Positions 1 to 64,000 of a DNA stretch of 64,000 nucleotides are shown here, piece after piece. How positions within the stretch are numbered: position 1 is the first letter of the stretch; every line of letters begins with the position of its first letter. The position numbers and the translations under genes were made by a program. This stretch comes from Massilia sp. H-1 (GTDB lineage: Bacteria > Pseudomonadota > Gammaproteobacteria > Burkholderiales > Burkholderiaceae_D), in NCBI GenBank assembly GCA_024703915.1, contig CP087969.1:1-64000 (forward strand), given 5' to 3'. Under the pieces are notes generated by a model, which saw only the letters and a list, made by a program, of their open reading frames with translations, ran no database searches and was not told the DNA's origin.

Positions 1-2
1 GG

Positions 3-76
3 CGGAGCGGACGGGACTCGAACCCACGACCCCCGACGTGACAGGCCGGTATTCTAACCAACTGAACTACCACTCC
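3..76 (-). tRNA. tRNA-Asp (GTC)
   Basis: On the minus strand the sequence folds as a cloverleaf. The acceptor 5' strand GGAGTGG pairs with CCGCTCC through one G-U pair, the anticodon loop is CTGTCAC with anticodon GTC, and the T-loop is GTTCGAGTC. CC of the CCA end is at the window edge. It is the last of a tRNA-Val/Asp/Asp string downstream of hup. It differs from its neighbour copy at one acceptor-stem base (GTGG against GCGG). Confidence 0.95.
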
Positions 77-96
77 AGAATTTGGGTATTTTTTGG

Positions 97-170
97 CGGA
101 GCGGACGGGACTCGAACCCACGACCCCCGACGTGACAGGCCGGTATTCTAACCAACTGAACTACCGCTCC
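97..170 (-). tRNA. tRNA-Asp (GTC), second copy
   Basis: Near-identical to the copy 20 bases further along the minus strand, with acceptor stem GGAGCGG/CCGCTCC fully paired and anticodon GTC. The short AT-rich spacer suggests both are processed from one transcript with tRNA-Val. Confidence 0.96.
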
Positions 171-197
171 TAAAAAATACGGGTACTGCATGTTTGG

Positions 198-273
198 TGG
201 TGGGCGCTGAGAGGCTCGAACTCCCGACCTAAGCCTTGTAAGGGCTCCGCTCTACCAACTGAGCTAAGCGCCC
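198..273 (-). tRNA. tRNA-Val (TAC)
   Basis: The minus strand begins GGGCGCTTAGCTCAGTTGG. The anticodon loop is CTTACAA with anticodon TAC, the T-arm GTTCGAGCC is present, and an encoded CCA end follows AGCGCCC-A. It lies between hup and the two tRNA-Asp genes, a common arrangement in Burkholderiales. Confidence 0.96.
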
Positions 274-335
274 GAGTCTGTCACAACCTGGGCCTGCCAA
301 ACATTCTCCGGTGATTGTCACCTCACCGAAGGCAA

Positions 336-604
336 TTAGTTTACTGCATCTTTGAGCGCTTTGCCAGCTTTAAATTTGGGAACTTTCGCTGCGGCGATCT
401 TGATGGTTTCCTTGGTGCGTGGATTGACGCCCGTGCGCGCGCGCTCCCCACCGAGAAGGTGCCAAAGCCGACCAGGGTCACGCTGTCGTTGTTGCGCAGG
501 CTGGTCGTGACGGCCTCGAGCACGGCGTCCAGGGCGCGCGTGGCCGATGCTTTGGAAATGTCCGCCGACTTGGCGATAGACTCGATTAATTCAGTTTTGT
601 TCAC
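336..604 (-). CDS. hupB: HU family nucleoid DNA-binding protein (frameshift in sequence)
   Basis: HU is a small histone-like dimer that bends DNA. The start [15 protein letters not shown] and the core [12 protein letters not shown] are typical HU. The expected second half ([28 protein letters not shown]) is in another frame and ends at a TAA at 336. The break lies in a GC repeat near 440-450, where ERAARTG would be expected, so one or two bases are probably wrong. Corrected length is about 90 residues, normal for HU-beta. It lies downstream of lon on the same strand, separated by lon's terminator, the usual proteobacterial order. Confidence 0.92.
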
Positions 605-655
605 TGGGACCTCGGAATGAAAAAGTGCAACCGCCCATTATAAACAGTGACGGCG

Positions 656-685
656 AAAAAGACAGGCACCCGAAGGCGCCTGTCT
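656..685 (-). terminator. Rho-independent terminator downstream of lon
   Basis: Read on the minus strand, AGACAGGCGCC, loop TTCGG and GTGCCTGTCT form a strong stem followed by TTTTTCG. It starts just past the lon stop at 706 and separates lon from hup. Confidence 0.85.
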
Positions 686-705
686 GGTACAGCGGTACTA
701 CCGGT

Positions 706-3118
<2,413 letters not shown>

Positions 3119-3275
3119 GGCATACCTTATAGAAAGCGTGTTTATGATGTTGGCACTGACTGCCAAAACACAAGACCGGCGGAAAACAATATTTTCTACA
3201 AGTAGTTTGAATAATTCAGCAACTTGAATCGAATACAACCGGGTTAATCTAAAAGAGTTTAACGGAACATCAAAT

Positions 3276-3318
3276 AAAAAGCCACCGCGCAGCTGGGTGC
3301 TGCGAGTGGCTTTTCGAT
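3276..3318 (-). terminator. Terminator between clpX and lon
   Basis: The minus strand reads AAAAGCCAC, a GC-rich inner stem (TCGCAGCACCCAGCTGCGCG) and GTGGCTTTTTAT. The A/T flanks make it usable in both directions. It follows clpX, so lon probably has its own promoter in the AT-rich 3120-3275 stretch. Confidence 0.75.
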
Positions 3319-3404
3319 TGAAGCCTGATTCTTTTATTGAGGTAAATTGTACCGCCAAGAATTAGGTATTCAAACCCTTTTTGTTGCGTGCACGCGGCAC
3401 TCGC

Positions 3405-4677
3405 TTAGTTTTCTCCGGAGGCCTTGGCAGTTTCGCTATAGATCAACAGGGGTTTTGCACCATTCGTGATCGTATTTTCATCGATAACGACTTTGATGAC
3501 ATTCTGCTGATTTGGCAATTCGTACATCACGTCCAGCAAAGCGTGTTCGAGAATCGAACGCAGACCGCGCGCACCGGTTTTACGCGCCAGCGCTTTACGC
3601 GCAATCGCGTGCAAAGCGGCCGGACGGATTTCCAGTTCCGCGCCTTCCATTTCAAGCAGCTTGGAATACTGTTTGATCAGCGCGTTCTTTGGTTCGATCA
3701 GAATCTGGATCAGCGCCTCTTCGGTCAGTTCGCTCAAGGCGGCCACAACCGGCAGACGGCCGACCAGTTCCGGGATCAGGCCGAACTTGATCAGATCTTC
3801 CGGCTCGGCGTCGAGCAGCACATCGCTGTTGTCGCGCTGAACCTGGCTCTTGACGCTGGCCGAGAACCCGATGCCGCTCTTTTCGGAACGGTTCTGGATG
3901 ATCTTGACCAGGCCGTCGAATGCGCCGCCGCAGATGAACATGATGTTGGTCGTGTCGATCTGGACGAAGTCCTGGTTCGGATGCTTGCGCCCGCCTTGTG
4001 GCGGCACCGATGCCATCGTGCCTTCGATCAGCTTGAGCAGTGCTTGCTGCACGCCCTCGCCCGAAACGTCGCGCGTGATCGACGGATTGTCGGATTTGCG
4101 CTGAAATCTTGTCGATCTCATCGATGTAGACGATGCCGCGCTGGGCCTTGTCGACTTCGTAGTTGCAGCTTTGCAGCAGCTTCTGGATGATGTTCTCGAC
4201 GTCCTCGCCCACATAGCTTAGCTTCGGTCAGCGTGGTGGCGTCGGCAATGACGAAAGGCACGTTGAGCATGCGGGCCAGGGTCTGGGCCAGCAGGGTCTT
4301 GCCCGAGCCGGTAGGACCGACCAGCAAGATGTTGCTCTTGGCCAGTTCGACGTCGTCTTTCTTGCCCAGGTGCTTGAGGCGCTTGTAATGGTTGTAGACC
4401 GCAACCGACAGGATGCGCTTGGCCTTCTGCTGGCCAATCACGTACTGGTCGAGCAGGTCCTTGATCTCGTTCGGCGTCGGCAGGTCGGACTTGGCGCCTA
4501 AGCAACCGACTCCACGTTCGACGTTTCGTCGTGGATGATGTCGTTGCACAGGTCGATGCATTCATCACAGATGAACACCGACGGTCCTGCGATGAGTTTC
4601 TTTACTTCGTGCTGGCTCTTGCCGCAGAACGAGCAGTAAAGGAGTTTTTCGCCGCTGGAGGATTTTTTGTCTGACAT
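3405..4677 (-). CDS. clpX: ClpX, ATP-binding unfoldase subunit of ClpXP (frameshifts in sequence)
   Basis: ClpX recognises tagged substrates and threads them into ClpP. The N-terminus carries the zinc-binding C4 domain (YCSFCGK ... [11 protein letters not shown]). Next come Walker [17 protein letters not shown], Walker B YIDEIDK, the IGF-like loop region and the C-terminal subdomain ([19 protein letters not shown]). About 424 residues are expected. Breaks are at 4499 (GCTTAGGC after ESV), 4213 ([14 protein letters not shown] with GCCGGC read as GCTAAGC) and about 4105. It is downstream of clpP with a terminator between. Confidence 0.95.
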
Positions 4678-4771
4678 GGGCAGGGTTTCTAATGGATTGC
4701 TATAAATATAACGCTAAGACGAGCGCACAACAAGTGCAGTGCGCATTGCCATGCTACCCGAAATAAAAAAC

Positions 4772-4806
4772 AAACGCCCGAACGTTGTCACGCTCGGGCG
4801 TTTTTT
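4772..4806 (-). terminator. Terminator downstream of clpP
   Basis: Minus strand: AACGCCCGAGCGTG, short loop, CGTTCGGGCGTTTGTTTTTT. It lies between the clpP stop at 4829 and the clpX start at 4677, so clpX is probably read both by read-through and from its own promoter. Confidence 0.85.
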
Positions 4807-4828
4807 CAGCAACAGTTTTGAGCGTGCA

Positions 4829-5446
4829 TCAAGCGCGGGATGTCAGTACTTTGTCGATCAGACCATATTCCGCGGCTTCGTCGCCCGACATGAAGCGATC
4901 GCGGTCCGTATCTTTGTGAATCTGTTCCATGGTCTTGCCGGTGTTTTCGGCCAGAATGTGGTTCAGACGCTCGCGCAGATACAGGATTTCCTTGGCCTGG
5001 ATTTCGATGTCCGACGCCTGGCCCTGCGATCCACCGGACGGCTGGTGAATCATGATGCGCGAGTTCGGCAGCGAGAAACGCTTGCCCTTGGCGCCAGCGG
5101 CCAGCAGGAAGGCGCCCATCGAGGCGGCCATACCGGTGCACAGCGTCGACACGTCGGGCTTGATGAAGTTCATCGTATCGAAGATCGCCAGACCCGCCGA
5201 CACCGACCCGCCAGGCGAGTTGATGTACAGCGAAATATCCTTGTCCGGATTCTCGCTCTCGAGGAACAACAGTTGCGCCACGATCAGGTTGGCCATCTGG
5301 TCGTTGACCGGACCGACCAGGAAAATCACGCGCTCCTTGAGCAAGCGCGAGTAAATGTCATACGAACGCTCGCCTCGGCCGCTCTGCTCCACCACCATCG
5401 GGATCAGGCCCAGGGATTGCGTATCCAACGCCGGATTACGGTTCAT
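4829..5446 (-). CDS. clpP: ClpP, ATP-dependent Clp protease proteolytic subunit
   Basis: Serine peptidase that forms the tetradecameric barrel of ClpXP/ClpAP. The 205-residue frame is complete. The catalytic triad is visible: Ser in [11 protein letters not shown], His in [10 protein letters not shown] and Asp in the following DTDRDRFM block. The start [18 protein letters not shown] carries the usual short propeptide before [20 protein letters not shown]. It is one of the few long genes here without a break, and it contains no expected GCCGGC. Upstream is tig, downstream clpX. Confidence 0.98.
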
Positions 5447-5498
5447 AGATGTCTCTTCCTTAAATTGGCGCGCAAGCCCGCAGGCTCGCGCCGAAGGC

Positions 5499-6845
5499 TT
5501 ACGCTTGTGCGTTACTTCCCATCAGTTCGTCAAAGGCGACCACTTTGGTGGACACTTTTGCCTTGCCGAGCACATAGTTGACGACGTTTTCTTCCAGTAC
5601 AAGGGCTTCGACTTCCGACAGGCGACGACGGTCGCTGTAGTAGTACTTGAGCACTTCTTTCGGATCTTCGTAGGACTGGGCGAAGTCTTCGATCTGGGCC
5701 TTGACCTGCTCAGCCGTGGCTTGCAGTTTGTTGTCAGCAACCAGTTGCGACAGGATCAGACCCAGGCGAACGCGGCGCTCTGCCTTGGTGGCGAACAGTT
5801 CTTGTGGGAAAGGCATGTTCTTGACATCCATACCGCGCTGGGCCATGTCCTGGCGGGTCATTTCAGGCCAGACGCTCGGAATCCTGAGCGATCATCGACT
5901 TCGGCACTTCCATGTCGGTCACGGCAACCAGGGCGTCCATCACGGCATCCTTGTTGCGTGCCTTGACGCGGCTTGGCATGACTTCGCGCTCGAGGTTGAC
6001 TTTGATGTCAGCGCGATTTTTGCCAGGTCGCCGTCTTCCATGCCCAGCGATTTGGCGAATTCAGCGTCGACTTCCGGCAGGTGCGCCCATTCCAGTTTTT
6101 TCAGGGTGATGGTGAACTCGGCGGTTTTGCTTAACCACATCTTTACCGTGGTAGTCCTCTGGGAATGCCAGTGGGAAAGTCTTGCTTTCGCCAACTTTCA
6201 GGCCAACGGTCGCCGCTTCGAATTCCGGCAGCATGCGGCCTTCGCCGAGCACGAAGGCGTAGTCGTCGGCTTTGCCGCCTGGGAATTCAACGCCGTCGAT
6301 CACGCCGACGAAGTCGACGGTGACCTTGTCGCCATTGGCAGCGATGGCAGGGCCGCCGTCGCCGTGGGCGCCAGCTTCACCCTTGGTGTGGTAGTGCACG
6401 CGTGCTTGCGCAGGATGTCGATGGTTTTTTCGATTTCCGCGTCCGACACGTCGGCCTTGACGGTTTCGATGTCCACTGCCGACAGGTCGCCAACGACCAC
6501 GTCAGGATAGACTTCGAAGGTCGCGTCGAAGGTCAGCACGCCTTCCGGGCTGTCTTCTTTTGGTTCGATTTTCGGATAGCTTAAAGCACGCGCAGCTCGG
6601 CTTTGTTCGCCGCTTCGGTGAACGCACGGCCAACTTTGTCGTTGAGCACGTCGTTTTCGATCTGGTAGCCGTATTGGGCCGCGACCATCTTCATCGGAAC
6701 TTTGCCTGGACGGAAGCCTGGGGCTTTGGCCGTTTTAGCCTGTTGTTTCAGGCGCTTTTCGACTTCCGTACGGACGTCAGTCAGCGGAAAAGAGATCGTC
6801 AAGCGACGTTCGAGTTTTACCCAGGGTGTCGACTGCAGTTGCCAT
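5499..6845 (-). CDS. tig: Trigger factor, ribosome-associated chaperone/PPIase (frameshifts in sequence)
   Basis: Trigger factor binds the ribosome exit and folds nascent chains. Visible parts are the ribosome-binding signature [13 protein letters not shown], the FKBP-like PPIase domain ([20 protein letters not shown] ... [13 protein letters not shown]) and the C-terminal arms ending GSNAQA. The start MATAVDTLG is at 6845. Breaks at 6581 (LRVLAGYPKIEP, GGCCGGC read as TTTAAGC) and 6130 (DVAGKTAEF, GCCGGC read as TTAAGC) fit the window-wide error. Others lie near 6405, 6020 and 5870. It is first in tig-clpP-clpX, the standard order. Confidence 0.95.
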
Positions 6846-6881
6846 TGTAAAAATCGTCCAAAAAAATATGAATTAAACTCG

Positions 6882-6968
6882 TGGTGCGAGGAGGGGGACT
6901 CGAACCCCCACACCATTGCTGGCGTCAGGACCTAAACCTGGTGCGTCTACCAATTTCGCCATCCTCGT
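6882..6968 (-). tRNA. tRNA-Leu (TAG)
   Basis: Class II tRNA on the minus strand. The anticodon loop is TTTAGGT (anticodon TAG) within CCAGG/CCTGA, with a long variable arm, T-loop GTTCGAGTC and an encoded CCA end. Position 1 reads A opposite C72 where G is expected, so either a one-base error or the 5' end is off by one. It lies just upstream of tig. Confidence 0.93.
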
Positions 6969-7147
6969 GGGATCGCAACCGCTATTGGCGGATGCCTCTT
7001 ACCGTCTGAAAACACAAAGGGCGCCCGACGATGAAACCGGCCGCCCTGCACTGCCTTTGTTAGGGGCTACAACATCAACCCGGTATTTTACTGGATTTCT
7101 TGACCACATAGGGGGAAATTTCATAGCGCTCTGGTGCGGGCTATAAT

Positions 7148-8641
7148 GTGAAAGCGTTTCCAAGTCCACCAGGATTCTCCCTGCATGAAACCCGAAAAAT
7201 CCAGCGCTGCTGGCAGCGGGGCCTGTTCGCCATTACCTGGCCCATCTTCATCGAGCAACTCTCGCATATCTTGCCGGGAATTGTAGATACCTTCATGGTC
7301 AGCCACCTGGGCGACAACGCCGTGGCCGGGCTGGCCGTGGCCAACCAGATCGTCGGTTTCTTCATCATCCTGTTCTCCTTTATCGGGATCGGCAGCACTG
7401 TTGTACTGACACACTTTCTCGGGCGCGACCCCTGACGGCGCCGCCCGCGTGGCCGCCACCGCGGTCGGCGTGAACTTCTGGCTGGGCGTGGCCGTGAGCG
7501 TGCTGATCTGGCTGGGGGTAGAGCGCCATGCTGCGCCTGCTGCGCCTGCCGCCCACGCTGATGCCCTACGCCCAGCCCTTCCTTGCGCTGATGGGCGGCA
7601 CCCTCTTCCTCGAATCGCTCAACATCGCCTTTGGCGCCGTGCTGCGCGCGCACGGGCACACGCGCGAAGCGATGCTGATCGCGATCGGCATGAACGTGAT
7701 CAACCTGCTGCTCAACGTCGTGCTCATTTTCGGGCTGCTCGGCTTTCCCAAGATGGGCGTGGTGGGCGCGGCCCTGTCGACCGTGGTCAGCCGCGCGCTG
7801 GCCTGCCTGGCGCTGGCCTGGGTGGTGCGGCACCGGCTGCAGCTCAAGCTGCGGCTGCGCTGGCTGACCCGCTTCTCGCGCGACGCCATCGCCCGGATAC
7901 TAAAGATCGGCATCCCGGCGGTAGACGAGAATCTGTGCTGGCAGGCAAGCTTCATGGTGATCACCTATTTCGTGGGCCAGATGGGAGAGAAGTCGCTGGC
8001 CACGTTTTCGTACGCGATGCAGCTGTCGATGATCATGATGATGCTTGGCATCGCGATCGGGATCGGCACCGAGATCATCGTCGGCCACCTGGTGGGCGCG
8101 GGCAAGCTCGATGAAGCCTACCGACAATTGCTGCGCAGTTTGCGGGTGGGACTGGGCGTGACCGTGATCACCACCTGCTGCGTGGTGGCGCTGGCGCCAT
8201 GGCTGTTCGGCATGTTCAGCAGCGACCCGGCGATCGTGGTAGGCGGCGCCCTGCTGCTGCGCGTCAGTCTTTTGCTCGAGCCGGGGCGCACCTTCAACCT
8301 GGTCGTCATCAACTCATTGCGCGCCACGGGCGACGCGTTTCCCGGTGCTGATGGGCATGTGTTCGATGTGGGGCGTGGCGGTACCGCTGGCCTGGCTGCT
8401 GGGTTTGCATCTGGGCTGGGGCCTGATCGGCATCTGGATCGCCTTCACCTGCGACGAATGGGTGCGTGGCCTGTCGATGTACGCGCTGGAAAAGCCGGGT
8501 CTGGGAAAAACACGCCCGCGCCATCCACACCGGGGTCAGACCTCAATTCTGAAATTGTTTTTTTATGGTGGTCTGACCCCGATTTTCGTCGGACTTCTTG
8601 GGCGTAAACCGAATTTTCTCAAGATCGGCGATGGGGACTGA
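7148..8641 (+). CDS. MATE-family multidrug/Na+ antiporter (frameshifts in sequence)
   Basis: Inner-membrane drug exporter of the MATE/DinF type. The start region matches the family: a basic lead then ITWPIFIEQLSHILPGIVDTFMVSHLGDNAVAGLAVANQI. Later repeats keep GAVLRAHGHTREAMLIAIGMNVINLLLNVVLIFG and VIAINSLRATGD-like text. Frames break near 7430, 7530 and 8340. The true start is uncertain; GTG 7148 gives the longest product. The C-terminus runs into the GGGGTCAGACC palindrome at 8532, so the last ~35 residues may be a read-through caused by an error at the real stop. Confidence 0.88.
8532..8580. repeat. GGGGTCAGACC palindromic repeat, copy 1
   Basis: GGGGTCAGACCTCAATT is followed 16 bases later by GGTGGTCTGACCCC, an imperfect hairpin. 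A related hairpin recurs 100 bases downstream. The form (conserved palindromic arms, T-rich loop, behind a gene 3' end) suggests a REP/BIME-like element, but I cannot test genome copy number. Confidence 0.75.
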
Positions 8642-8681
8642 CCGCTTCCACGGCCGGGCGCCACCGCACCAAACAAAAACA

Positions 8682-8730
8682 GGGGTCAGACCTCCATTTC
8701 GCAAGAATTGCAAAATTGAGGTCTGACCCC
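8682..8730. repeat. GGGGTCAGACC palindromic repeat, copy 2
   Basis: GGGGTCAGACCTCCATTT and AAATTGAGGTCTGACCCC flank a short AT-rich loop. It shares both 13-base ends with copy 1. It lies between the convergent MATE and RND genes, where it could also act as a bidirectional 3' hairpin. Confidence 0.75.
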
Positions 8731-8745
8731 GAATTGGGAAGTTGC

Positions 8746-12996: not shown

Positions 12997-13080
12997 AGGG
13001 ATTTCCTTTACTATGCGGTGGGCTAAGCAGCGGACCGTCTCGGTGATGTCATGATGCTACTACCCCGGGACCACCCGCTG

Positions 13081-50910: not shown

Positions 50911-50931
50911 TAAACTGAAAGAAACTCCGCG

Positions 50932-52665: not shown

Positions 52666-52691
52666 GGGTGTCCTGAATTTTGTGTAAAACG
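52666..52691. repeat. Left inverted repeat of the IS256-family element
   Basis: Starts GGGTGTCCTGAATTTTGTGT. Shares TTTTGTGTAAAACG and GGGTGT with the right end in inverted orientation. Confidence 0.88.
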
Positions 52692-52700
52692 GGGTTTCGT

Positions 52701-53958: not shown

Positions 53959-53993
53959 TTCTCCTTGATGGTGGCAGTTTCCTGCCAAATGAC

Positions 53994-54019
53994 CGTTTTA
54001 CACAAAATTATTTACACCC
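53994..54019. repeat. Right inverted repeat of the IS256-family element
   Basis: Reads TTTTACACAAAATTATTTAC then ACCC on the plus strand, the complement of the left end with three internal mismatches. Confidence 0.88.
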
Positions 54020-54199
54020 TCGACGGTGGCGGCGCCGATCGAAGGAAGAGACACGAAATACGTGTCGCTACGCTGGGACGTCAGAAAGAACACCACAGTC
54101 AAGCTCCAGTACGATATTAGCAAGGACAAGTCCGAATATGCATACCCCTTCTTCGGCGACTCCAAATTGCTGTCGGTGGCCCTGCAAGGGATCTTTTAG
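54020..54199 (+). pseudogene. 3' remnant of an outer-membrane-type gene cut by the IS
   Basis: Open from the IS edge: YVSLRWDVRKNTTVKLQYDISKDKSEYAYPFFGDSKLLSVALQGIF, then TAG at 54197. The alternating polar/hydrophobic pattern and final Phe fit the last strands of an outer-membrane barrel. The N-terminal part is not found on the other side of the IS. Confidence 0.6.
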
Positions 54200-54421
54200 A
54201 GCGCGCAGATCGAACTCCACCCAAGTCAAAGGCCCGATTTCGCCTAGTCGCCATTGGATGTTCGCTGTGGTCTGTGGCTGGCAGGAGTTAACAAGCGTCC
54301 GGTGCCCCCCAACTCGAACGCATTGCTTAGCCGATTCGGTTCGCCGGGGCCCTTCTGCAGCCCGCGCCCGCGCGGTCGAATAGCAGATCCCATACTTTTC
54401 CCATCCAATTACATGATCGGC

Positions 54422-56273
54422 ATAGGGGGCAGCCCTGAAGGGCCGCTCCCCTGCCACACCACCCGGCATGCGGGTCCGCACCGGGCGGTTCGGGTAGTTG
54501 AGGTCAGGACAGGCGCGGTACGCCAAGCCGGTCGAAGTAGGCAATCGTCAGGACTGTCTTTAACAGCCCGTTGGCATTGCGCCACCAGCGGCGGCTGTTT
54601 GCCGCCACCTGTCGCAGCACCAACGGCGCGGCCCCGAGCCGGGTCAGTTCCCGATACATGGTTTTCCCGCGTTTCCAGTGCTTGAGCTGGATAGCTCGCA
54701 GTCTGTGACGCAGCCATTCATCGAGTTCTCGCCAAACCTTGGGAGTTTCCGCCAGCTTGTAGTAGCCTTCCCAGCCAAGCATGTAGGAGCGCAGCTTTGC
54801 AACGATCTGGGGCATGCTGCGACCTCCAGAGCGTCCCGTCAGCTCACGGATACGCTGCTTGAACGTTGCCAGCGGCTTTTCCGCAACCTTCAGCTTCACC
54901 ACTCTCCCACGTCCTGCCCACAGGCTGTAACCGAGGAACTTGCGGCCGAAGGCATTGCCGACCGCACTCTTGCTTTCGTTGACCACGAGGTGCAACTTGG
55001 CATAGAGGCGACGCAGCAACGCCATCACCCGCTCGCCAGCGCGTTTGCTGCGAACATAGACGTTTGCGTCATCGGCGTAGCGTGCGAAGCAGTGGCCGCG
55101 TCGCTCCAGTTCCTTGTCCACTTCGTCGAGCAGGACGTTGGCAAGCAGCGGCGACCGCGGGCCGCCTTGCGGCGTGCCTTCGTTGCGCGCCTGCACCACG
55201 CCATGGTCCATGATGCCGCTGTTCAGATAGGCACGGATCAGCCGGATCACCCCGGCGTCGTCGATGCGTTTCCGTAAGCGGTCAATCAAGATGTCATGGT
55301 TGATCCGGTCAAAGAACTTCGACAGGTCCACGTCCACCACGACCCGCCGTCCCGACTGGACGTACGCTCGGGCGGCAAGTACCGCGTCCTGCGCTCGCCG
55401 CCCCGGACGGAAACCGTAGCTGTGCTCGCTGAATGTGGGATCAAGAATCGGTTTGCAGCACCTGGAAGCAGTGCCTGCTGGATCAGCCGATCCGTCACCG
55501 TCGGAATGCCGAGCTCGCGCTCACCACCGTCGGGCTTCGGAATCGTCACCCTGCGTACCGGACTGGGCCGGTACGTTCCTGTCAGCAATTGTTCGCGTAT
55601 TTCCGGCCAAGCCACGGCCAGGTAGCGCGCGGTTTCGTCGATGTCCCGACCATCCACCCCGGCTGCGCCCTTGTTGGCGCGCACACGCTTGAACGCCTGC
55701 AGCAGATTTTCCCTTCTCAACGCTGCGCGCAGCAGCATCGATCCTGCGTCTCCTGTCTCATGCCGCGGGCCACAAGCTTCGTCGCTGGAAGTTCCAGTCA
55801 AGGCTTCACCCTGACCTACGGCCTCCCGCCCCGCCTTCGCGGGCATCTGACGCATTGCCTGTCGCATCGACATGCCGGATGACACTCCTACTCGTTCAGT
55901 CCTTCACCGATGGGGTCGAGCCTTCCCGGCGCTACCACCAGCTACTATGACCTCTGCTGAGACCCTGCTACGGCAACACCGCCGTCCTTTCAGACGTGAG
56001 GCAGGGCGTCCCCAGGTAAGGGCCGCACTCCTTCATCACACAACCGCCGCATCTACGCCGCTTTGCCTTGGCCACAAGAGCTTTGCGGTTTCTGGCCCGC
56101 TCGCCCTGCTCGGCAGCGCCTTCTATGCGATTCGTGTTCCTCGGCTCGTGATTTACGCTCCACGCTTCCTCCCCACGGTCGATTGCTCTCCCGCAGTTGC
56201 GCTTCACTTCGCTCGCTGTGGCCAGCTCACGGCGGGACTTTCACCCACAGGAGTGCGCCCATGCTGGGCGCAC
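54422..56273 (-). mobile_element. Class C group II intron
   Basis: On the minus strand the 5' end is GTGCGCCCAGCATGGGCGCA, the hairpin start typical of bacterial class C introns, followed by CTCCTGTGGGTGAAAGTCCC. The 3' end carries a domain V-like stem (CCGCCCGGTGCGGACCCG region, 54447-54490) and a domain VI-like stem ending CTGCCCCCTAT. Length about 1852 bp with an internal maturase/reverse transcriptase. It sits 6 bases past the stem of a 13-bp terminator hairpin, the known target preference of class C introns. Confidence 0.88.
54504..55885 (-). CDS. ltrA: Group II intron reverse transcriptase/maturase (frameshifts in sequence)
   Basis: RT0-RT7 text is clear: LLQAFKRVRANKGAAGVDG, KPDGGERELGIPTVTDRLIQQ, VVDVDLSKFFDRINHDIL, GTPQGGPRSPLLANVLLDEVDKEL, catalytic FARYADDANVYVRS. 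The maturase X domain is FLGYSLWAGRGRV then GWEGYYKLAETPKVWRELDEWLRHRLR. Ends RLGVPRLS at 54504. Extra bases near 55445-55460 (ALLQVLQPILDPTFSEHSYGFRPGRR) break the frame. About 460 residues. No En domain, as expected for class C. Confidence 0.93.
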
Positions 56274-56278
56274 AAAAC

Positions 56279-56310
56279 AAAAGGCCTGCGTCGGAAGACG
56301 CAGGCCTTTG
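56279..56310 (-). terminator. Terminator hairpin that serves as the intron's target
   Basis: Minus strand AAAGGCCTGCGTC-TTCC-GACGCAGGCCTTT followed by TGTTTT, a perfect 13-bp stem with a T-rich tail, then the intron 5' end GTGCG at 56273. The gene it served is upstream (higher coordinates) but I cannot identify it. Confidence 0.85.
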
Positions 56311-56799
56311 CTGTGATGCAGAATTCTTGGTGGGAAGTGCAAGTTTCGAATTTGACAACTAATTTCAATGGATCACGATAGATCACTCTCACGTAGCAGG
56401 AGCTGTCCTACATACTCCACCATAGGCATCTGGAAGCGCTCTAAGATGCGCTGCGGCTGCCCCAAATTTGCCCCAAATTCGTCCCTCTAGCCGGAACAAA
56501 AAAGCTGGGCGCCCGCGGAGCTGCGCCGAAAATCGTGCGGCTGACCTTCGTCAATACCGATACGGAATTTAGCGGCGGCAGTATTTGGCGACCCTTCTCT
56601 AGTCGGGCCCCTAAGGTTGCGCTGGCAAAATATAAAATCTCGGACCTATCAATCCACACCGCGTGGAAAGTAGAACATAGCAGCGCCCAAGATGTCCAAC
56701 TAATCAGGCACGCAAGGAAAATTCCCTACACCACGTTTCCACTTCGCGTTAATCTCAGGCCGCCTCTCCTGTACAACCTGCTAAGTGCGGAGGATGTGA
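56311..56799. other. AT-richer stretch without a recognised gene
   Basis: Lower GC than the surroundings. At 56333-56355 the minus strand has CAAATTCGAAACTTGCACTT CCCACCA-like text that resembles a decayed tRNA 3' end. Frames such as the one reading TNLGQIWGSRSAS on the minus strand are short and have no family features. May be the edge of an integrated element. Confidence 0.45.
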
Positions 56800-57018
56800 A
56801 TGAACTCAATTGGGATATTAGACATCTTTGAAGTAGCAGCCGCGCTCAAGACAGACGAACGTTGTGTCGATCTGTTGGCATCACGGGGAGAAATTCCCGC
56901 CACCAAGATTAATAATCACTGGATTTTTCTTCAGGAGGACCTGATGTTATTTATCCGGGCCCGCATCGATATCGAAACGGCAGAGCGAAAAAGGCGGCGA
57001 CAGAGCGCAGCGCCGTAG
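56800..57018 (+). CDS. Excisionase/MerR-type helix-turn-helix protein (72 aa)
   Basis: IFEVAAALKTDERCVDLLASRGEIPATKINNHWIFLQEDLMLFIRARI matches the winged helix of excisionase-family (HTH_17) proteins, where the recognition helix is followed by a xx-W wing and an acidic helix. Ends in an Arg-rich tail (AERKRRRQSAAP). Start ATG 56800. No integrase is readable nearby, so it may be a leftover of a larger element. Confidence 0.7.
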   Translation: MNSIGILDIFEVAAALKTDERCVDLLASRGEIPATKINNHWIFLQEDLMLFIRARIDIETAERKRRRQSAAP

Positions 57019-57497
57019 CACACGGCTCAGCTAGTCGACGACGTAGTCGAGAGCGAAACGAAAGATTACTTGAAGAAATGAGAGCGTTATCGCTGGCGAA
57101 TGGATTACCTATGCCCAGTACATTGTCCGGCCCAAGTACGTGACACTCCGAGCAGCCCGCTATTGCGCGCCAAGAACGTTGAGGGCTTTGCAGGCCGTTT
57201 AACTACCAGTGAAATCAACCACTTACACCAACACCACACCGAGAGCCTCTTGAGCTTGATCAAACAGGCAGGGCACAAAGACTCGGCAGGCGCCGAGGTT
57301 CTGGCTAGGCCTCGCTCCTCACCGGGTTCAATGGCAGTAAGGAGGCTTTGACACTCACATTTCTTACGCAATTGATCCTCGTTGAGTCACTGAAGTTTTG
57401 CAACAAGGTGAGCTATACACCAACTCGTGTACGAGCGCCAAACTTGCCCCTGCCGTCCGGCGACGCGGAACTGCCCTGCACGCCCGGCGAGGTTCGC
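57019..57497. other. Stretch without a recognised gene
   Basis: 479 bases between the excisionase-like gene and the TonB-receptor stop. Both strands hold frames of 80-140 residues but none has a family pattern. The plus-strand frame at 57100 (MDYLCPVHCPAQVRDTPS) has no ribosome site I can support. I call nothing here. Confidence 0.5.
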
Positions 57498-59681
57498 CTA
57501 GAGCTTCAATTCCAGCGCGGCCTGGAGGCGCGGCGATCCATGCCCCACGTTCCAGGTTTCACTGGCCCCGTCCGCATTTCGGTAACGCACGCGGGTTGGG
57601 CTATCTTCACCGAGCAGATTGGTCAGCGCGACGCGTACTTGTGTGCGCGGATCGACTTTGTAGAGAATGTAAGCCTCGAGGTCGCTTGCCATGGTACAGC
57701 TGGGCACTCTGTCGCTCCGATTGCTGTGTGCGCCCTCCGGCCCGGTAGGCAAAGCTGGCACCGCTGGTAACCTTGTCCGCTTTGTAGTCGAACCCAAGCA
57801 CGGCACTGAACGGCACTTGCTCGTCCAGGCGGTTGTCCGGGCCTGGCACCGCGTCCACGATCGACCAGTTACGGCTCGCTGGCGCGCACATCGACTGACG
57901 CCGCCGCCGTCCAGACTGCCTTGAGCGGAAATTTCGCTTCCACATCCAGCGTGCGCACGTGGGCGCGCCCACTGTTGACTGGCTGATCGAACCACTGGCC
58001 ATTGTCGTCCTGGTCCCGCTGCGACCGAATATAGTCGGTGATCCGGCGCGCCCCAAAGGCCACCGAAAACAGGGCCGAGGGGGCCCAGAAATGCTCGTAG
58101 GTCAGATCGATACCGCTGGCCAGTTCTGGCTTGAGGGCCGGGTTACCGATACTGTCCGGACTGAAACGGGTGTTCAACGACGCAATATAACGGCGCGCGC
58201 TCAACTGGCCTGGTTCGGGCGCCTTGTACGTGCGCGTCAGCGCGACCCGCACCTGACGCCCACTTTTGTCTGGGAATTTGTACAAGCTTTGCGCGACCGG
58301 ACTGAGCACCTGGCTGCGCGAGCTGCTGCTCGGAATCCCGGTCCCGCTGCTGTCGGTGGCAATTTTTTCCCAGCGCGCCCCCAGGTACAGTGACCACTGC
58401 TTGGTCACACTCCACTCGTCTTGCGCAAAGGCCGCGAGGCGCCGCACTTCAGGCTCGAAACGCTCGTCGACCATGGTTTCCTCCGCACCGCTCAGGCGGT
58501 CGCGGCGCATCACGTGTTCATCACTCTGGCGTTTGCTCACTTCCCACCCGGTAGCGAGGTTATGACCGTCAAAGAAGGTGCGCGCGAACTTGAGCGTACT
58601 GGTCAGCGTCAGATAGCCACTGTCGGCCAGGGTTGCGCGCTGCAGCCGGTCCTGCAGGGTCCGCCGCCCGATATAGCGCGTCGATATGGTTCTCAACCCA
58701 GCCGCGATTGATGCTGACCTTGACATCAAGTTTGCCATGCCTACTTACTACTGACTGACCAGACTGGCGTCGGCGCCCGCGTAGCGGATGCTGCCGTCGC
58801 TGTTCAGGTTGCGGCTGAGGTAATCAGGCGCGGCGAAACTGCCGATCAGATTGGTGGCCTCGGCGCTCACCGCTGTGTCGGTCCGGATCGACTGGAGAAA
58901 TCCTCCTGCATTGAGCTGATCGCCATCGGCCAGTTTCCAGTTCAGGCGCGGCTGCACGATAAGCTGCTCGGTATGGCCATTCTGGGTCGAGTGGCTGATG
59001 CGCAGCTGCACCAGTTCCCCCTGCGGATCGGTCAGTTGGTCTTTGCCGCTCGATTCGGGCGTGGTGTGCGTTTTGGTCGCCGTCGCATTGAGAAAATACG
59101 ATAGATTGCCAGTCCGGTCCGCCAAGGTCAGCGTAGCCGAGGCGTTCTTGCTCTCGCCGGTGAGCACGGAATTGATGCGCAGATCGCGCTGCGCCTTCGA
59201 TACCACTTTCTTGAGGACGATATTGATCGTTCCGGCAATCGCCTGCATGGAAAACTCGGCCGTCGCGGCACGCACAATTTCAATACGTTCGATCTGGGAC
59301 GGCGGCACGTTTTCGAGCGAGAAGCCGGGCGCAGGACGCTCGCCATTGACCAAAATCTGGGTATATCCATTGCCCAGCCCGCGCATGCGAATACTGTTGC
59401 CAATCACCGTGACACCTGGAGCACGCTTGAGGACATCGAAGATGTTGCTGTCGCCGTATTTCAGCAACTCCTCTTGATTGATGACGGTCTTGCTGGCGGT
59501 GTCGTCACGGCGCGGATCGTAATCGCCCGCGCTGGCCTTGATTTCGACTTTGCTCACGGCTTAGCTCATCGGCTTTCGCCTTCGCCAGGACACGTTCATT
59601 GCTGCTTTCTTGTTGCGCGGCGACTGTACGGGAAAGACCCAACAGCATCAGGGCCGCAACCCGTCGTTTCGAAGAGGACAT
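57498..59681 (-). CDS. TonB-dependent outer-membrane receptor (frameshifts in sequence)
   Basis: Signal peptide MSSSKRRVAALMLLGLSRTVAAQ. After a GCCGGCC break at 59563 the plug domain reads VSKVEIKASAGDYDPRRDDTASKTVINQEELLKYGDSNIFDVLKRAPGVTV, GLGNGYTQILVNGERPAPGFS and VRAATAEFSMQAIAGTINIVLKK. The barrel follows to LQAALELKL at 57498. Breaks near 58745, 58145, 57950 and 57640. About 728 residues. No substrate-specific neighbour transporter; the unit is on the same strand as the oxygenase genes 1.2 kb upstream. Confidence 0.93.
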
Positions 59682-59805
59682 CAAGCTCGATCAATTAGTG
59701 TAGTTCGTTTCCGCAGCGAGAAACAGTCAATTCCAGGCACGCGGTCCGTGCCAGTGCAGCGCCGGGCGCGCACGCCCGGACGGTTGCACCGCCGCCATGC
59801 GCCAA

Positions 59806-60092
59806 TCAGGGCTGCGGCTTGCCGATCACAGGCGCGCCGGTCGTTTTGCCTTCGCTGTTGAACTGAATCGACACGCTGCGCCCGGTCTGGGGCGCGTCCG
59901 GGTGCTCGGCATAAACATACCCGCTGCCGCTGTCGACGATCCGGTCAGGCCGCGCGCCCATGACCTTGACCACTTCCTGGCGTGTCATACCGCTGTGTAC
60001 GCCCGCAGCGTTGTCGAACATGCGCGCCTTCATATCGGAGGCGCATCCCGCCCCCCTGCTATCAATGCCATTGCTATCAAAAATTTTTTCAT
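59806..60092 (-). CDS. SmpA/OmlA-like small lipoprotein
   Basis: N-terminus MKKFLIAMALIAG, a G-run with a probable one-base loss, then CASDMKARMFDNAAGVHSGMTRQEVVKVMGARPDRI. The lipobox would be ..G-C-A-S. The GMTRQEVVKVMG helix and GSGYVYAE/VSIQFNSEGK strands match BamE-like SmpA/OmlA folds. About 95 residues; ends GKPQP. 29 bases downstream of the methyltransferase stop, same strand. Confidence 0.78.
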
Positions 60093-60121
60093 ATTCACCT
60101 TTCTGGAAAATGGAGCTCAGT

Positions 60122-60921
60122 TCAAGCTGACGGAATACGCACCGGCTTAAGCAACAGGCTCGGTGTGATGATTTTCAACCACGCAGTACTGTTCTGCGGC
60201 CGATCGTGCCGTTCCACCAAGTGGATCAGCTTGAAAATCGATCCCGTCACCACATCGTGAATCTTCTTGCGTTCACGTTCATTGCCCGCAGCATTGAGAA
60301 GTTCGACAGGCACCTTATTGCCTTCCAACATAGTCGTCAATGCTTCCAGCATATAATACGACGTCATATTGGTCGATGCGGAATCAATGAAGATGGAGGC
60401 ATTCGTATTCAGCCGCGGCAGGAAGGTGGCGAGTACGTTAACGATGGTGGGCACCGAGTGGTTAAAGTCGGAAAACACCATATCGATCTTGATGTCGTCT
60501 GCGCCCCCCCAATCGCCTCGTCCAGCCAGCGCCGGTCTTGCAGATCGATCTCGCGCTCGATGCACTTGACGTGCGCGGCGCCGCCACTGCGCTCAAACGT
60601 CTTTGCCAGAAAATCAGGCAGCGTCGTGCAGCCCGACAGCACTTCCAAGGGGCCATTCAATGCCGCCACTCTGCCAATTTCATATGACCGCGCAAAGTGG
60701 CCGCCGTTATCGACCGTGTAAATGGTGCCGCCGCCATTCTCGGCCATGGCGGCGGCGATCCACGCCGTCGACACGCCCATGCCGGTTCCCAATTCGACGA
60801 CCACACGCGGTTTCTCCCGCTTGACCAGACTGTACAGCAAGACGCACAAATCTTCACTGCCGTACATGGGACCGAGCTGGTCGCGCATTGCCTGCAAAAA
60901 CTCAAAGTTGCCGATATTCAC
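60122..60921 (-). CDS. Class I SAM-dependent methyltransferase of the oxygenase cluster (frameshift in sequence)
   Basis: Motif I PRVVVELGTGMGVSTAWIAAAMAENGGG, then ENGGGTIYTVDNGGHFARSYEIGR, ADDIKIDMVFSDFNHSVPTIVNVLATFLPRL. The C-terminus TSYYMLEALTTMLEGNKVPVELLNAAGNERERKKI is in another frame, joined at a C-run (60507). About 267 residues. GTG start overlaps the upstream oxygenase stop by 20 bases, indicating translational coupling. The fold is like CmcI/rhamnosyl-O-methyltransferases; substrate unknown. Confidence 0.84.
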
Positions 60922-62199
60922 GCCACATCCATTTCCATGATTGATACATTCGCTTGGGCACGATGCAGACGCCCTTGCGCACGATAAGCTGATTGACCAG
61001 CACCAGGCATACATCGAGATCGAGTTCGGAACGCTGGCTTAGTTCCGTCATGCTCAGCGGTGTTCCGCTGTTGAGCAGCACAACAAGCGCGCCTATACGG
61101 GTATCGTGGCGCATTTCCAGCCGGGTGCCGCGCACATACAACGCCACTTCTTTACCGTTGTCGCAGACGCGCAGCTGCATAGTGAACGGGGCCGCGCTGC
61201 AAACGACCGTGTCAGCAGACAGCACCACATCTTCCTTGAGCGGTAACGGTGCATTGCGCAGGCCGCCATTACTGAACAGCGAATAGCGCAGGTCGACATA
61301 GGTTGCACGCAGCAATTCTGCCAGGGTCTTGTTGGCATCCTGAGCCGTACCGAACAATGCCAGGGTGCGGTCCACAGCCGAGCAGTCATCGATGCCGTTC
61401 TTGTCGGCCTTGAGCATCACGGGCGATTCGGCAATCAGATTGTTTGCCGTCATTTGCATCAGCGTGTGCGCAAAGTCGGTGCTGGCACGGTTATTCCACC
61501 AGCACGCGATGCCCATTGAAAGGCCGTCTTGCGTCCCCAGGTGAAACCGGTTCTCGGGCATGAAATAGATATCGCCCTCGGCAAAAGTATGCTGCTGCGC
61601 ATAAGGAAGATGGGGCACGATGTCCATATTGTTTTGCGCGGCGTCACCTGCGCGCGCCATGTATTCTTCGTCGTCCCAACAGTACATGGTCTTGGCGCCA
61701 GGCCCCAGATGGAAATGCATCACCGATTTCCCTGGTAAATCCTTGTGAATGCCGAGCGGTGTCGAATCATAGTTGCCGACAAAAATTGTAAACAACAATC
61801 CTTCGCTGGGCATGCCGATCTGCTCGATGAGTGGGGCAAGTTTGACGCGCCACCACCGACGACATAGCATCGCTGAATTTTTCGCCGCAGGTTCAGAATG
61901 ATGCCGAACTTTTCTCCGACAAAAATTCGCTGGACCCATGCGTCGAGATCCTCGCCGGGCAACGGGGCGCGCCGGAAGATATCGCGCTCGTCGTCGACTT
62001 TACGCCCGCCCACCCACAGCCGATAACCATATTTGCGTTTATAGTCGGTGTGCAGATCACGAATCATGCCCATGACTGCCATGCGCATTTGCCTGGTTTC
62101 GGCTGGGTCAAAACTGTTCGGAAGCACCGCAGGGGCCGACATGCCTTCGGTCGCAGCCAGGAAATCGGACCACCAGTTACTGGAAAATTTTTCGGCCAT
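60902..62199 (-). CDS. JmjC/cupin-fold Fe(II)/2OG oxygenase-like protein 1 (frameshift in sequence)
   Basis: Core: LLFTIFVGNYDSTPLGIHKDLPGKSVMHFHLGPGAKTMYCWDD, in which GIHKD supplies the H-x-D metal ligands, then FAEGDIYFMPENRFHLGTQDGLSMGIACWW with the distal His. N-terminal part MAEKFSSNWWSDFLAATEG and GYRLWVGGRKVDDERDIF. The C-terminal winged-helix-like block is ALVVLLNSGTPLSMTELSQRSELDLDVCLVLVNQLI. Frame break near 61850. About 430 residues. Start 62199 overlaps the upstream paralog by 23 bases. Layout (JmjC plus wHTH) recalls the ROXA/YcfD type. Confidence 0.82.
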
Positions 62200-63594
62200 C
62201 ATATGCAGTTGCAGTCTCATTTTGTTGTTCGACAAGTTCGATACCCCGACGCTTGTACAATTCCAATAAAAAATACTGGCCGATGCTGCGGTCCCACGCA
62301 GGATCGAGCAAGTCCAGCAGCCTTGCCACGGCAAGGGGTCCTCCAGCGTTGATCGCCGCCACTAGGGCATGAATGCAGGCAAAATCGCGCATCTCGATCC
62401 GGTGCCCGCGCACGTACACGTGCAATTGCCCGTCGCCGTCGGCCACGCGCAGCAAGATCCGATATGGCGTAACACCGCGCACCACGCTTGCCTCGCTCAG
62501 TTCCACGGGCTCGGTATTAAAGAAAGGCGTGCCACGATAACCGCCATTGCTGTGCAAGGCGTAGCGCGCGTCGCGATACGCCTCGCGCAACAGGTCGGCG
62601 TAACTGCGCGGTCCGAAGGCAGCGTCGATGTCGTGGGCGAGCAGGGCTTGAGCCAGGCCTAAGCAGTGCTCTCAAGCTCGTTGCGGTCGCTGCCAATGAC
62701 CACATCATCGGTTGTGGCGATCAGCTTGCCCACCCGCGTGCAGGTTTTTGAGCAGCAGCGCGTCTGAATGGTTGTACTGCCATACCGTCAGTCCCATCGA
62801 AAAGCCGCTTTGCTCGCCGATATGGAAGATCCCTTCAGGCATGAAAAACACGTCACCGGGCCCGAAGTTGTATTCCGTCGCATGCGGTTTGAAGGCGTCC
62901 ACATCACTGCGCAGGGTGCGACTTGAGCAATTCGCGGTAGGTCGGCTCGTCCCACAGGAACATGCTCTTGCGCGCTGGGCCGAGATGGAAGTGCATGACA
63001 TTTTCGCCGCGCTTGTCCTGATGGATACCCAGCGGTGTCTTGTCATAGTTGCCGATAAAGATGGTGTAGTTGATGCCTTCCCTTGGAAAACCGAGCGCGG
63101 CAAACAAAGGCGCGAGCATCAGCGATTTCCTGAGACAGGGCATGCACAAATTTTTCGCCGGTATTGATGATGATACCGAATTCTTGCTCCGGAAATACCC
63201 GGGCCACCCACGCCAGCAAGTGTTCGCCAGGTGCGGGCGGATGATCGTAAAAATGGTCCAGGCGCTTGCGCGGCAGTTGCTCGCCATTGATATAAATGCG
63301 CAGCCCATACTCATTGGTGCGCAGGCGGCACAGCTCACGCAGCACTTCCAGCACGGACTGCTCGAAAAGTCGCGCCTGGCGGGATCGACGCAACCCTGTA
63401 GTTCCCACAATGCCATCGAAACGGTGGAACTGGCAAAACTCACGCGCGAACAAGTCTAAGCTTTCGGGTCTGAGATCGACGTAAGGATGGCTGCTCGTTT
63501 GCTCGCAGATTTGATAACCATCCACTATCACGTCTCGGACAAGTACATCGCGCTGTTCACCCACTTCATCCCGTGCGATGTTTATCCCCATCGG
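62177..63594 (-). CDS. JmjC/cupin-fold Fe(II)/2OG oxygenase-like protein 2 (frameshifts in sequence)
   Basis: Start MGINIARDEVGEQRDVLVRDVIVDGYQICEQTSSHPYVDL at 63594. Core INYTIFIGNYDKTPLGIHQDKRGENVMHFHLGPARKSMFLWDEP, with the H-x-D in GIHQD, and FGPGDVFFMPEGIFHIGEQSGFSMGLTVWQYN with the distal His. C-terminal ALVAAINAGGPLAVARLLDLLDPAWDRSIGQYFLLELYKRRGIELV is wHTH-like. Breaks at 63125, 62925 and 62656 (TAGLAQALL, GCCGGCC read as GCTTAGGCC). About 470 residues. It is 10 bases after the outer-membrane factor gene. Confidence 0.82.
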
Positions 63595-63604
63595 CTTCCG
63601 GCAT

Positions 63605-64000
63605 TCAGCGCAGCGCCACCGCGTCGGCCTGCGGAGACTGCCAACCACCGCCAAGCGCCTTGAAAGCAGCAACCGCCGCACGCGCGGACTCAGTTTGCGC
63701 TTGCGCCCGCATGTCCAAGGCCCGCAGCAAGTTCTCGTCGGCCTGGAGGACTTCGATCAGGCTAACCACGCCCTTCTGATAAGCGGCGAACGATGCCTTC
63801 CTTGCAAAGCCCAGGGAGTCCACGCCTTGCCCCAGCATGGCCGCCTGCCCTTCACGCTTGACCAGATCCGACAGCGCGTTTTCCACGTCCGCGGTCGCCC
63901 GCAGCGCCGCCAGCCGGTAAGCGGACAGCGCCTCCGCCTCCTGCCCCTTGGCCTGATCAATTTGGGCATTGATACGGCCGAAGTCAAATAGCCGCCAGCG
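63605..64000 (-). CDS. TolC/NodT-family outer-membrane efflux factor, 3' part
   Basis: Partial; the 5' end lies beyond the window. RWRLFDFGRINAQIDQAKGQEAEALSAYRLAALRATADVENAL is the second alpha-helical repeat of the outer-membrane factor family, followed by GVVSLIEVLQADENLLRALDMRAQAQTESARAAVAAFKALGGGWQ. Ends DAVALR. It leads the minus-strand unit with the two oxygenases and the methyltransferase, so a secretion function for their product is likely. Confidence 0.88.
   Translation of the reverse strand, partial: RWRLFDFGRINAQIDQAKGQEAEALSAYRLAALRATADVENALSDLVKREGQAAMLGQGVDSLGFARKASFAAYQKGVVSLIEVLQADENLLRALDMRAQAQTESARAAVAAFKALGGGWQSPQADAVALR

What the first reader, a model, noticed from the sequence alone, without database searches (positions are those of the whole stretch)
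1..64000. Recurrent TAAGC/TTAGGC lesions mark former GCCGGC sites and break dozens of genes
At more than 30 gene breaks the protein family predicts GCCGGC on the coding strand, but the text shows GCTTAGGC, GCTTAAGC, GCCTAAGC or GCTAAGC. Examples: tig 6130 (VAGKT), RND 8797, 10046 and 10140, adaptor 12056 (DAGSV), hpnE 15913 (QAGMF), thrC 23290 (CAGH), sdaA 26693 (AAGII), regulator 30342 (MAGKY), POP 33719 (KAGHG), exonuclease 44524 (HAGLV), Hsp70 45697 (LAGIA) and 45052 (DAGCA), methyltransferase 50403. Insertions are mostly +1 or +2, so they ruin frames. Essential genes (lon, clpX, tig) cannot all be dead. The simplest reading is a modified palindrome GCCGGC that a single-molecule basecaller or consensus misreads, i.e. 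an unannotated methyltransferase specificity written into the assembly.
Basis: partly seen in the sequence, partly recalled or inferred. Interest (0 to 1): 0.85.

Follow-up and report, generated by a model that had tools for sequence, protein, structure and literature searches.

The report
Methylation scars in a nanopore-only genome
The odd TAAGC strings that seem to break dozens of genes are most likely sequencing mistakes made where this Massilia-like bacterium carries methylated GCCGGC sites, and its genome encodes a fitting NaeI-type restriction-modification system, so it is the published sequence rather than the genes that is damaged.

Summary
In the window GCCGGC is the most depleted hexamer, and GCTTAAGC the most over-represented octamer against an order-1 model. 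Genome-wide, GCCGGC is at 11-13% of what 16 congeners predict; GCTTAAGC occurs 1773 times against 13-41 in them. Of 379 GCCGGC sites in a relative aligned to 264 kb of this genome, 11 are kept (2.9%; hexamers in general 36.4%). Persistent frameshifts are about tenfold too frequent; 213 of 468 are of this type, 255 are not. The only C5-methyltransferase gene that a family search found lies beside Vsr and a NaeI-family endonuclease; NaeI cuts GCCGGC (recalled). Three other NaeI carriers keep GCCGGC near the control count. The contig's length equals Massilia sp. H-1 (CP087969) to the base, a MinION R9.4.1 assembly with no short reads described. This is a modification-induced consensus artefact of a known kind, at a motif for which two literature searches listed no such report. 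The modified base itself could not be measured.

The parts
26053..60152 (.). GCTTAAGC, 12 copies starting at 26053, 26689, 28958, 29844, 34841, 38880, 41430, 45696, 47414, 49608, 50403, 60145
   Evidence: positions; top octamer against an order-1 model; in the 264 kb sample 0 of 51 aligned copies have the same string in G006, 16 have GCCGGC
1673..50684 (.). GCTTAGGC, 5 copies starting at 1673, 12056, 13219, 44524, 50677
   Evidence: positions; 0 of 25 aligned copies shared with G006, 6 have GCCGGC
4496..62664 (.). GCCTAAGC (reverse complement of GCTTAGGC), 12 copies starting at 4496, 8792, 10046, 10140, 15909, 24491, 33338, 38968, 45051, 47585, 48906, 62657
   Evidence: positions; 0 of 32 aligned copies shared with G006, 8 have GCCGGC
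263..40987 (.). GCTAAGC, 6 copies starting at 263, 13022, 14136, 20479, 30342, 40981; the copy at 263 lies inside tRNA-Val (198-273) and may be natural
   Evidence: positions; tRNA; 0 of 22 aligned copies shared with G006, 8 have GCCGGC
4216..59565 (.). GCTTAGC (reverse complement of GCTAAGC), 11 copies starting at 4216, 8744, 12484, 12924, 19366, 33718, 35083, 53902, 53922, 54325, 59559
   Evidence: positions; 1 of 30 aligned copies shared with G006, 10 have GCCGGC
16906..45247 (.). the 10 GCCGGC sites still spelled so, starting at 16906, 18459, 20488, 24802, 26500, 32479, 32955, 42921, 44912, 45242
   Evidence: about 52-74 expected in the window
   Evidence: sequence; both aligned relatives (G006, G011) have GCCGGC within the compared stretch
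1..64000 (.). the window as a sample of the genome-wide signature; the presumed cause, a NaeI-type cassette (C5 methyltransferase, Vsr, NaeI-family endonuclease), lies outside the window, from about 3,045,936 to at least 3,048,455 of the same contig

Best explanation
The lesions are consensus basecalling errors, not mutations. The strain carries a NaeI-type restriction-modification system whose cytosine-5 methyltransferase most likely methylates GCCGGC on both strands, probably at the inner C (position 3). Guppy 5.0.11 on R9.4.1 reads had not learned this modified context and read the inner CG between the outer GC...GC as TTAA, TTA, TTG, CTAA, TAA and so on, the choice depending partly on the base just outside the site. 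Because reads of both strands erred at the same place, Racon and Medaka kept the errors, and most became +1 or +2 frameshifts in the deposited sequence. Shown here: motif-locked loss of GCCGGC, the lesion spectrum, a flank effect, the cassette, and the nanopore-only origin by exact length match. Inferred: that the enzyme is active, that its target is GCCGGC, which C carries the methyl group, and that the reads show the errors.
For: (1) GCCGGC 1645 against control CGGCCG 8570 (0.19); 16 congeners 1.46-1.76. It is the lowest ratio that I found by reading the table of 399 genomes of the order by eye; next 0.23 and 0.27 (genomes with 23 and 39 sites) and 0.41. GCTTAAGC 1773 against 13-41 in 16 congeners. 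(2) At 379 GCCGGC sites of G006, 11 kept (2.9%) and 133 length-changed (35%); all hexamers 36.4% and 5.3%; GCCGGC is the extreme on both counts among hexamers with at least 60 sites. Of the 133, 116 are longer and 85 keep GC at both ends; inner strings TTAA 16, TTA 10, TTG 9, CTAA 8, TAA 8 lead. (3) T stands at -1 in 61% of GCTTAAGC and 72% of GCTTAGGC but 17% of kept GCCGGC, as expected of a signal-context error. (4) Persistent frameshifts 2.53 per kb against 0.20-0.31 per kb in six pairs of other congeners; 0 of the 44 shifts in those pairs have GCCGGC at the break and 4 of 44 a TA core. Completeness 48%. (5) A PF00145 search found one gene in this genome, in two pieces, next to Vsr and a NaeI-family endonuclease (PF09126 E 4.4e-48; PDB 1EV7 NaeI E 4.8e-26). 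Its N-terminal piece is 52-55% identical, over about 240 residues, to the 5 of 5 NaeI-linked methyltransferases compared, and 26-38%, over 95-250 residues, to the 10 of 11 other PF00145 loci of the order that gave a hit. (6) NaeI over the cut-off in 1 of 399 genomes of the order, this one; one other had a weak match below it. (7) PMC9933642 (whole text): Massilia sp. H-1, CP087969, 5,836,689 bp, this contig's length; MinION R9.4.1, ligation kit, Guppy 5.0.11, Flye, four Racon rounds, one Medaka round; 8,116 coding sequences. (8) Precedent: in a Klebsiella benchmark about 70% of consensus errors of then-current ONT basecallers fell in 5mC-bearing Dcm motifs (PMC6591954, passages).
Against: No reads or raw signal were examined. 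The methyltransferase and the endonuclease are themselves split over frames in this assembly, so intactness is not shown, and NCBIfam gave no hit for the endonuclease piece. In gonococcus, 5mC at GCCGGC was called from nanopore data at 32 of 33 pilin-locus sites, with no mention of such damage in the passages I read (PMC12871193, a preprint); chemistry and basecaller may differ. 255 of 468 persistent frameshifts carry neither mark. About 11-13% of the expected sites are spelled correctly. The flank effect is not seen in all forms: GCTTAGC has T at -1 in 31% and GCTTGGC in 24%, and tables on sites defined by the relative are too small to confirm it. The control hexamer GGCCGG, which overlaps GCCGGC, also shows 28% length change. 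The other NaeI carriers have no congener baseline and their sequencing method is unknown to me. The genome identity rests on length and genus.
Confidence: 0.87

Rival explanations
1. Same artefact, different chemistry: the modified base at GCCGGC is not plain 5-methylcytosine from the NaeI-linked enzyme but N4-methylcytosine, a phosphorothioate or a bulkier cytosine made by another enzyme.
For: The length errors are mainly insertions, whereas in the Listeria precedent the errors were mainly mismatches (PMC10687267, first of five parts read). In gonococcus 5mC at GCCGGC was called from nanopore data (PMC12871193 passages).
Against: The one PF01555 hit of this genome has named best relatives among adenine enzymes (RsrI, MboIIA; that RsrI is an adenine enzyme is recalled); its two best PDB matches are named only 'Methyltransferase', and N4-cytosine enzymes score far lower; NCBIfam adenine families matched below their cut-offs. 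The C5 enzyme in a NaeI cassette accounts for the motif without another enzyme. 5mC in Dcm motifs is documented to spoil consensus. Other methyltransferase families and phosphorothioate (dnd) genes were not searched for.
Confidence: 0.1
2. Real loss of sites: restriction avoidance or deamination of methylated cytosine has removed GCCGGC from the genome over evolutionary time.
For: A NaeI-type system is present, and palindrome avoidance is a known effect of such systems (recalled). Three other NaeI carriers have ratios of 0.87-1.05, lower than the 1.46-1.76 of this genus, though without baselines of their own.
Against: Avoidance gives substitutions, not +1/+2 insertions. The other carriers, each listed as 100% complete, still hold 911-4294 sites near the control count. 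GCTTAAGC is 43-136 times as numerous as in congeners.
Confidence: 0.02
3. Ordinary noise of a long-read assembly without short reads, with no special motif.
For: The assembly holds many other frame errors (255 of 468), with homopolymer and CG-repeat contractions among the raised contexts.
Against: GCCGGC stands alone: 2.9% kept against 26-48% for nine control hexamers. With these sites masked, the worst other hexamer was CCCGCG with 19% length change.
Confidence: 0.02
4. Genuine insertions at GCCGGC by a mobile element or mutagenic repair process, so that the genes really are pseudogenes.
For: The strings are recurrent and partly palindromic.
Against: Site- or lesion-type breaks fall in 105 of 152 aligned open frames of the sample, with no inserted element, only one to a few bases; two main forms track the flanking base; strain H-1 forms colonies.
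Confidence: 0.01

Closest known systems
Modification-induced systematic errors in nanopore assemblies (Dcm motifs in Klebsiella, PMC6591954; Listeria genomes, PMC10687267)
   Same: Errors that survive consensus and polishing because the basecaller was not trained on the modified base.
   Different: Here the motif is GCCGGC, the length errors are mainly insertions with a T/A core that shift frames, and the signature was read from a finished assembly without reads.
NaeI type IIE restriction-modification system (PF09126; PDB 1EV7, 1IAW)
   Same: NaeI-family endonuclease near a C5 methyltransferase. In 4 of 5 other NaeI loci the methyltransferase is the next gene, in the fifth (Rhodococcus plasmid) an HNH gene lies between. 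A Vsr-type gene is present as on that plasmid.
   Different: The match to NaeI (E 4.8e-26 over 138 residues) is at family level; specificity untested; the genes are split by frame errors in this assembly; here Vsr lies between methyltransferase and endonuclease.
NgoAIV (GCCGGC) system of Neisseria gonorrhoeae (PMC12871193, passages read)
   Same: Methylation of GCCGGC, scored there as 5mC from nanopore data.
   Different: No such sequence damage is mentioned in the passages read; the endonuclease families were not compared here.

Membership tests
Modification-induced nanopore consensus error | Errors concentrated at one short motif far above matched controls | tested here: met
   GCCGGC 2.9% kept and 35% length change against 36.4% and 5.3% for all hexamers; nine controls 26-48% kept
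Modification-induced nanopore consensus error | Assembly made from native-DNA nanopore reads without short-read polishing | tested here: met
   By exact length and genus this is CP087969; the paper, read whole, describes no short reads. Identity by length is an inference.
Modification-induced nanopore consensus error | A cognate modification enzyme in the same genome | tested here: met
   C5 methyltransferase gene in a NaeI cassette; its target is inferred from the family
Modification-induced nanopore consensus error | Errors vanish in amplified DNA or short reads | not testable with these tools
   no reads available
Modification-induced nanopore consensus error | Error form depends on local sequence context | tested here: met
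   T at -1 in 61% and 72% of two main forms against 17% of kept sites; weaker or absent in other forms
NaeI restriction-modification system | Endonuclease of family PF09126 | tested here: met
   E 4.4e-48; PDB NaeI E 4.8e-26; no NCBIfam hit
NaeI restriction-modification system | Nearby cytosine-5 methyltransferase of the NaeI-linked group | tested here: met
   52-55% identity to five NaeI-linked enzymes, 26-38% to 10 other PF00145 loci
NaeI restriction-modification system | Intact reading frames | tested here: inconclusive
   Both genes lie in two frames, as expected in an assembly with about 2.5 persistent frame changes per kb
NaeI restriction-modification system | Cleaves and methylates GCCGGC | not testable with these tools
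   needs an enzyme assay or methyl sequencing

The most novel reading that the evidence does not exclude
The mark at GCCGGC in this strain is not ordinary 5mC but a different or bulkier cytosine modification, made by this cassette or by an enzyme not yet found. Its scar in the finished sequence is a flank-resolved record of that mark, so that unusual modifications and their specificities could be read from public nanopore-only assemblies without any reads.
Probability: 0.1. Interest if true: 0.55.

Novelty: new member of a known kind. Interest (0 to 1): 0.35.

Why it matters
Very many apparent gene breaks in a public 'complete' genome are artefacts. If congeners are a fair guide, about 10,800-13,500 GCCGGC sites are overwritten, and the record carries 8,116 coding sequences. 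Anyone using it for pseudogene, pangenome or protein work would be misled. It also shows that a methylation specificity can be proposed from a FASTA file alone and then matched by finding a fitting enzyme, which could be made into a screen of other nanopore-only assemblies.

Tried and rejected
23S rRNA as an internal replicate: no GCCGGC occurs in the 23S of four relatives (18 copies), so it could not test the lesion. One search was spoiled because copies on the minus strand were not turned; one search corrected this. Three fragmentary 23S matches of G009 were left out. Own copies vary at 44 columns, relatives' copies at 24-40, so 23S is little worse than normal. A second modified motif was sought with the known sites masked: CCCGCG, GCCCGC, CG repeats and A runs are mildly error-prone; nothing like GCCGGC. 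PF01555 as cause: one hit, nearest named relatives adenine enzymes. Raw gap counts were too noisy (4.6-6.1 frame-changing gaps per kb in the five pairs of other congeners at about 80% identity), so persistent frame changes within long open frames of the relative (at least 150 codons, chosen mechanically, not annotated genes) were counted. Literature: searches (GCCGGC and nanopore, 15 papers listed; two of three terms, 8 of 175 listed) showed no title or abstract on this error; apart from the passages of two papers that I read I saw listings only, and the library is partial, so this is no proof that it is undescribed.


Full report
What was checked. The window is bases 1-64,000 of a single 5,836,689-base contig with a listed completeness of 48%. 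Its closest match among the held congeners, G006 (87% in the best stretch), has a contig of exactly the length of one of Massilia sp. CF038, so the organism is Massilia-like. GCCGGC is the most depleted hexamer in the window under both models used, and GCTTAAGC the most enriched octamer against an order-1 model.

Genome-wide signal. GCCGGC occurs 1645 times against 8570 for the reversed control, a ratio of 0.19; in 16 congeners the ratio is 1.46-1.76, which implies 12,470-15,123 sites and 11-13% kept. In the table of 399 genomes of the order, read by eye, this is the lowest ratio; the next are 0.23 and 0.27 in genomes with 23 and 39 sites, and 0.41. GCTTAAGC occurs 1773 times here and 13-41 times in 16 congeners.

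What stood there before. I aligned 264 kb of this genome (the window plus 200 kb) to 280 kb of G006; 206 kb aligned at 81.7% identity. Of 379 GCCGGC sites in G006, 11 are identical here and 133 change length; all hexamers together are 36.4% identical and 5.3% length-changed. Nine control hexamers are 26-48% identical; one of them, GGCCGG, overlaps GCCGGC and has 28% length change. From the other side, 160 copies of the five main lesion strings align to G006: the same string is there in 1, GCCGGC in 48, and the 119 six-base counterparts spell GCCGGC at 72-94% per position, as 18% divergence would leave of an ancestral GCCGGC.

Form of the lesion. Of 133 length-changed sites 116 are longer and 17 shorter; 85 keep GC at both ends and replace the inner CG, most often by TTAA, TTA, TTG, CTAA or TAA. 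T precedes 61% of GCTTAAGC and 72% of GCTTAGGC but 17% of the surviving GCCGGC; GCTTAGC (31%) and GCTTGGC (24%) show it weakly or not, and counts on sites defined by the relative are too small to decide. A mutational process has no evident reason to follow the outer base; a basecaller that reads a short stretch of signal does. That the inner CG changes suggests the modified base is the inner cytosine; this is inference.

Effect on genes. Lasting frame changes inside long open frames occur at 2.53 per kb here against 0.20-0.31 per kb in six comparisons among other congeners. Of 468, 213 have GCCGGC in the relative or a TA core here (110 and 162, both in 59); 255 have neither. In the six comparisons 0 of 44 have GCCGGC and 4 of 44 a TA core. 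So the GCCGGC artefact is the largest single cause that I found, but the assembly has many other errors, with homopolymer and CG-repeat contractions among the raised contexts. 135 of 152 aligned open frames carry at least one lasting shift, 105 at least one of the marked type.

The presumed enzyme. A PF00145 search of this genome found one C5 methyltransferase gene, at about 3,045,936-3,046,978, split over two frames. Beside it lie a Vsr gene (PF03852, TIGR00632) and a NaeI-family endonuclease (PF09126 E 4.4e-48; PDB 1EV7 E 4.8e-26; no NCBIfam hit). That NaeI cuts GCCGGC is recalled; two papers that hold both terms were listed and not read. The endonuclease family is over its cut-off in 1 of 399 genomes of the order and 4 of 398 of the phylum sample, this one included in both. 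At five other NaeI loci (three of those genomes, two plasmids) a related methyltransferase is the next gene in four and the next but one, after an HNH gene, in the Rhodococcus plasmid. Ours is 52-55% identical to those five over about 240 residues, and 26-38% over 95-250 residues to the 10 of 11 other PF00145 loci of the order that gave a hit; those ten were not checked for NaeI one by one. G006 keeps both flanks of the cassette but nothing in the 2.7 kb between them matched; it has 1.0 kb there, and PF00145 found no C5 enzyme in G006.

Controls for biology. Three other NaeI carriers, all listed as 100% complete, have GCCGGC at 0.97, 0.87 and 1.05 of the control count. The system by itself therefore does not empty a genome of its sites to this degree. 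These ratios are below those of Massilia, so some avoidance is possible; I took no baseline from their own congeners, and how they were sequenced is unknown to me. The one PF01555 methyltransferase here has adenine enzymes as its nearest named relatives. Other methyltransferase families were not searched.

Origin of the assembly. PMC9933642 (whole text) reports Massilia sp. H-1 (RCAM05339, CP087969) with a genome of 5,836,689 bp, equal to this contig, sequenced on MinION R9.4.1 with a ligation kit, called with Guppy 5.0.11, assembled with Flye 2.8, corrected four times with Racon and once with Medaka, with 8,116 coding sequences and reads under SRR21050826. No short reads are mentioned.

Comparison with what is known. 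In a Klebsiella benchmark about 70% of the consensus errors of then-current ONT basecallers fell in Dcm (5mC) motifs (PMC6591954, passages). Low-quality Listeria assemblies were traced to modifications unknown to the basecaller, mainly mismatches, cured by amplification (PMC10687267, first part of five). RIMS-seq lists 'GCCGGC (3)' for Aeromonas hydrophila NEB724, which I read as 5mC at position 3 (PMC8565308, passages). The present case is one more of that kind, at GCCGGC, with insertions as the main length error.

Verdict. What is added is the quantification, the cassette, the flank effect, the other-carrier control and the likely identity of the assembly. Interest is moderate: an artefact of a known kind, but an instructive one.

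Noticed in passing
same contig, about 3,047,218-3,047,622 (L087:2403-2807), outside the window: A Vsr mismatch endonuclease gene is part of the NaeI cassette, fitting repair of T:G mismatches left by deaminated 5-methylcytosine (function recalled).
   Followed up: partly
264 kb sample including the window: Besides GCCGGC, CCCGCG/GCCCGC, CG repeats and A runs show raised length change, with contractions prominent.
   Followed up: partly
own 23S rRNA copies (L099, L103, L108, L112, L116): A few insertions occur in only one or two of five 23S copies, some next to CC or CCC, probably residual consensus errors outside GCCGGC.
   Followed up: no
strain Massilia sp. B-10, CP087970 (5,833,599 bp): Same cave, same paper, same pipeline, 8,249 coding sequences; may carry the same artefact. 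Not examined.
   Followed up: no
same contig, 2,924,431-2,925,039 (L125), outside the window: A PF01555 methyltransferase gene, best PDB matches 9C3U and 8URK ('Methyltransferase'), next RsrI; the upstream gene looks like hisD by recall only.
   Followed up: partly
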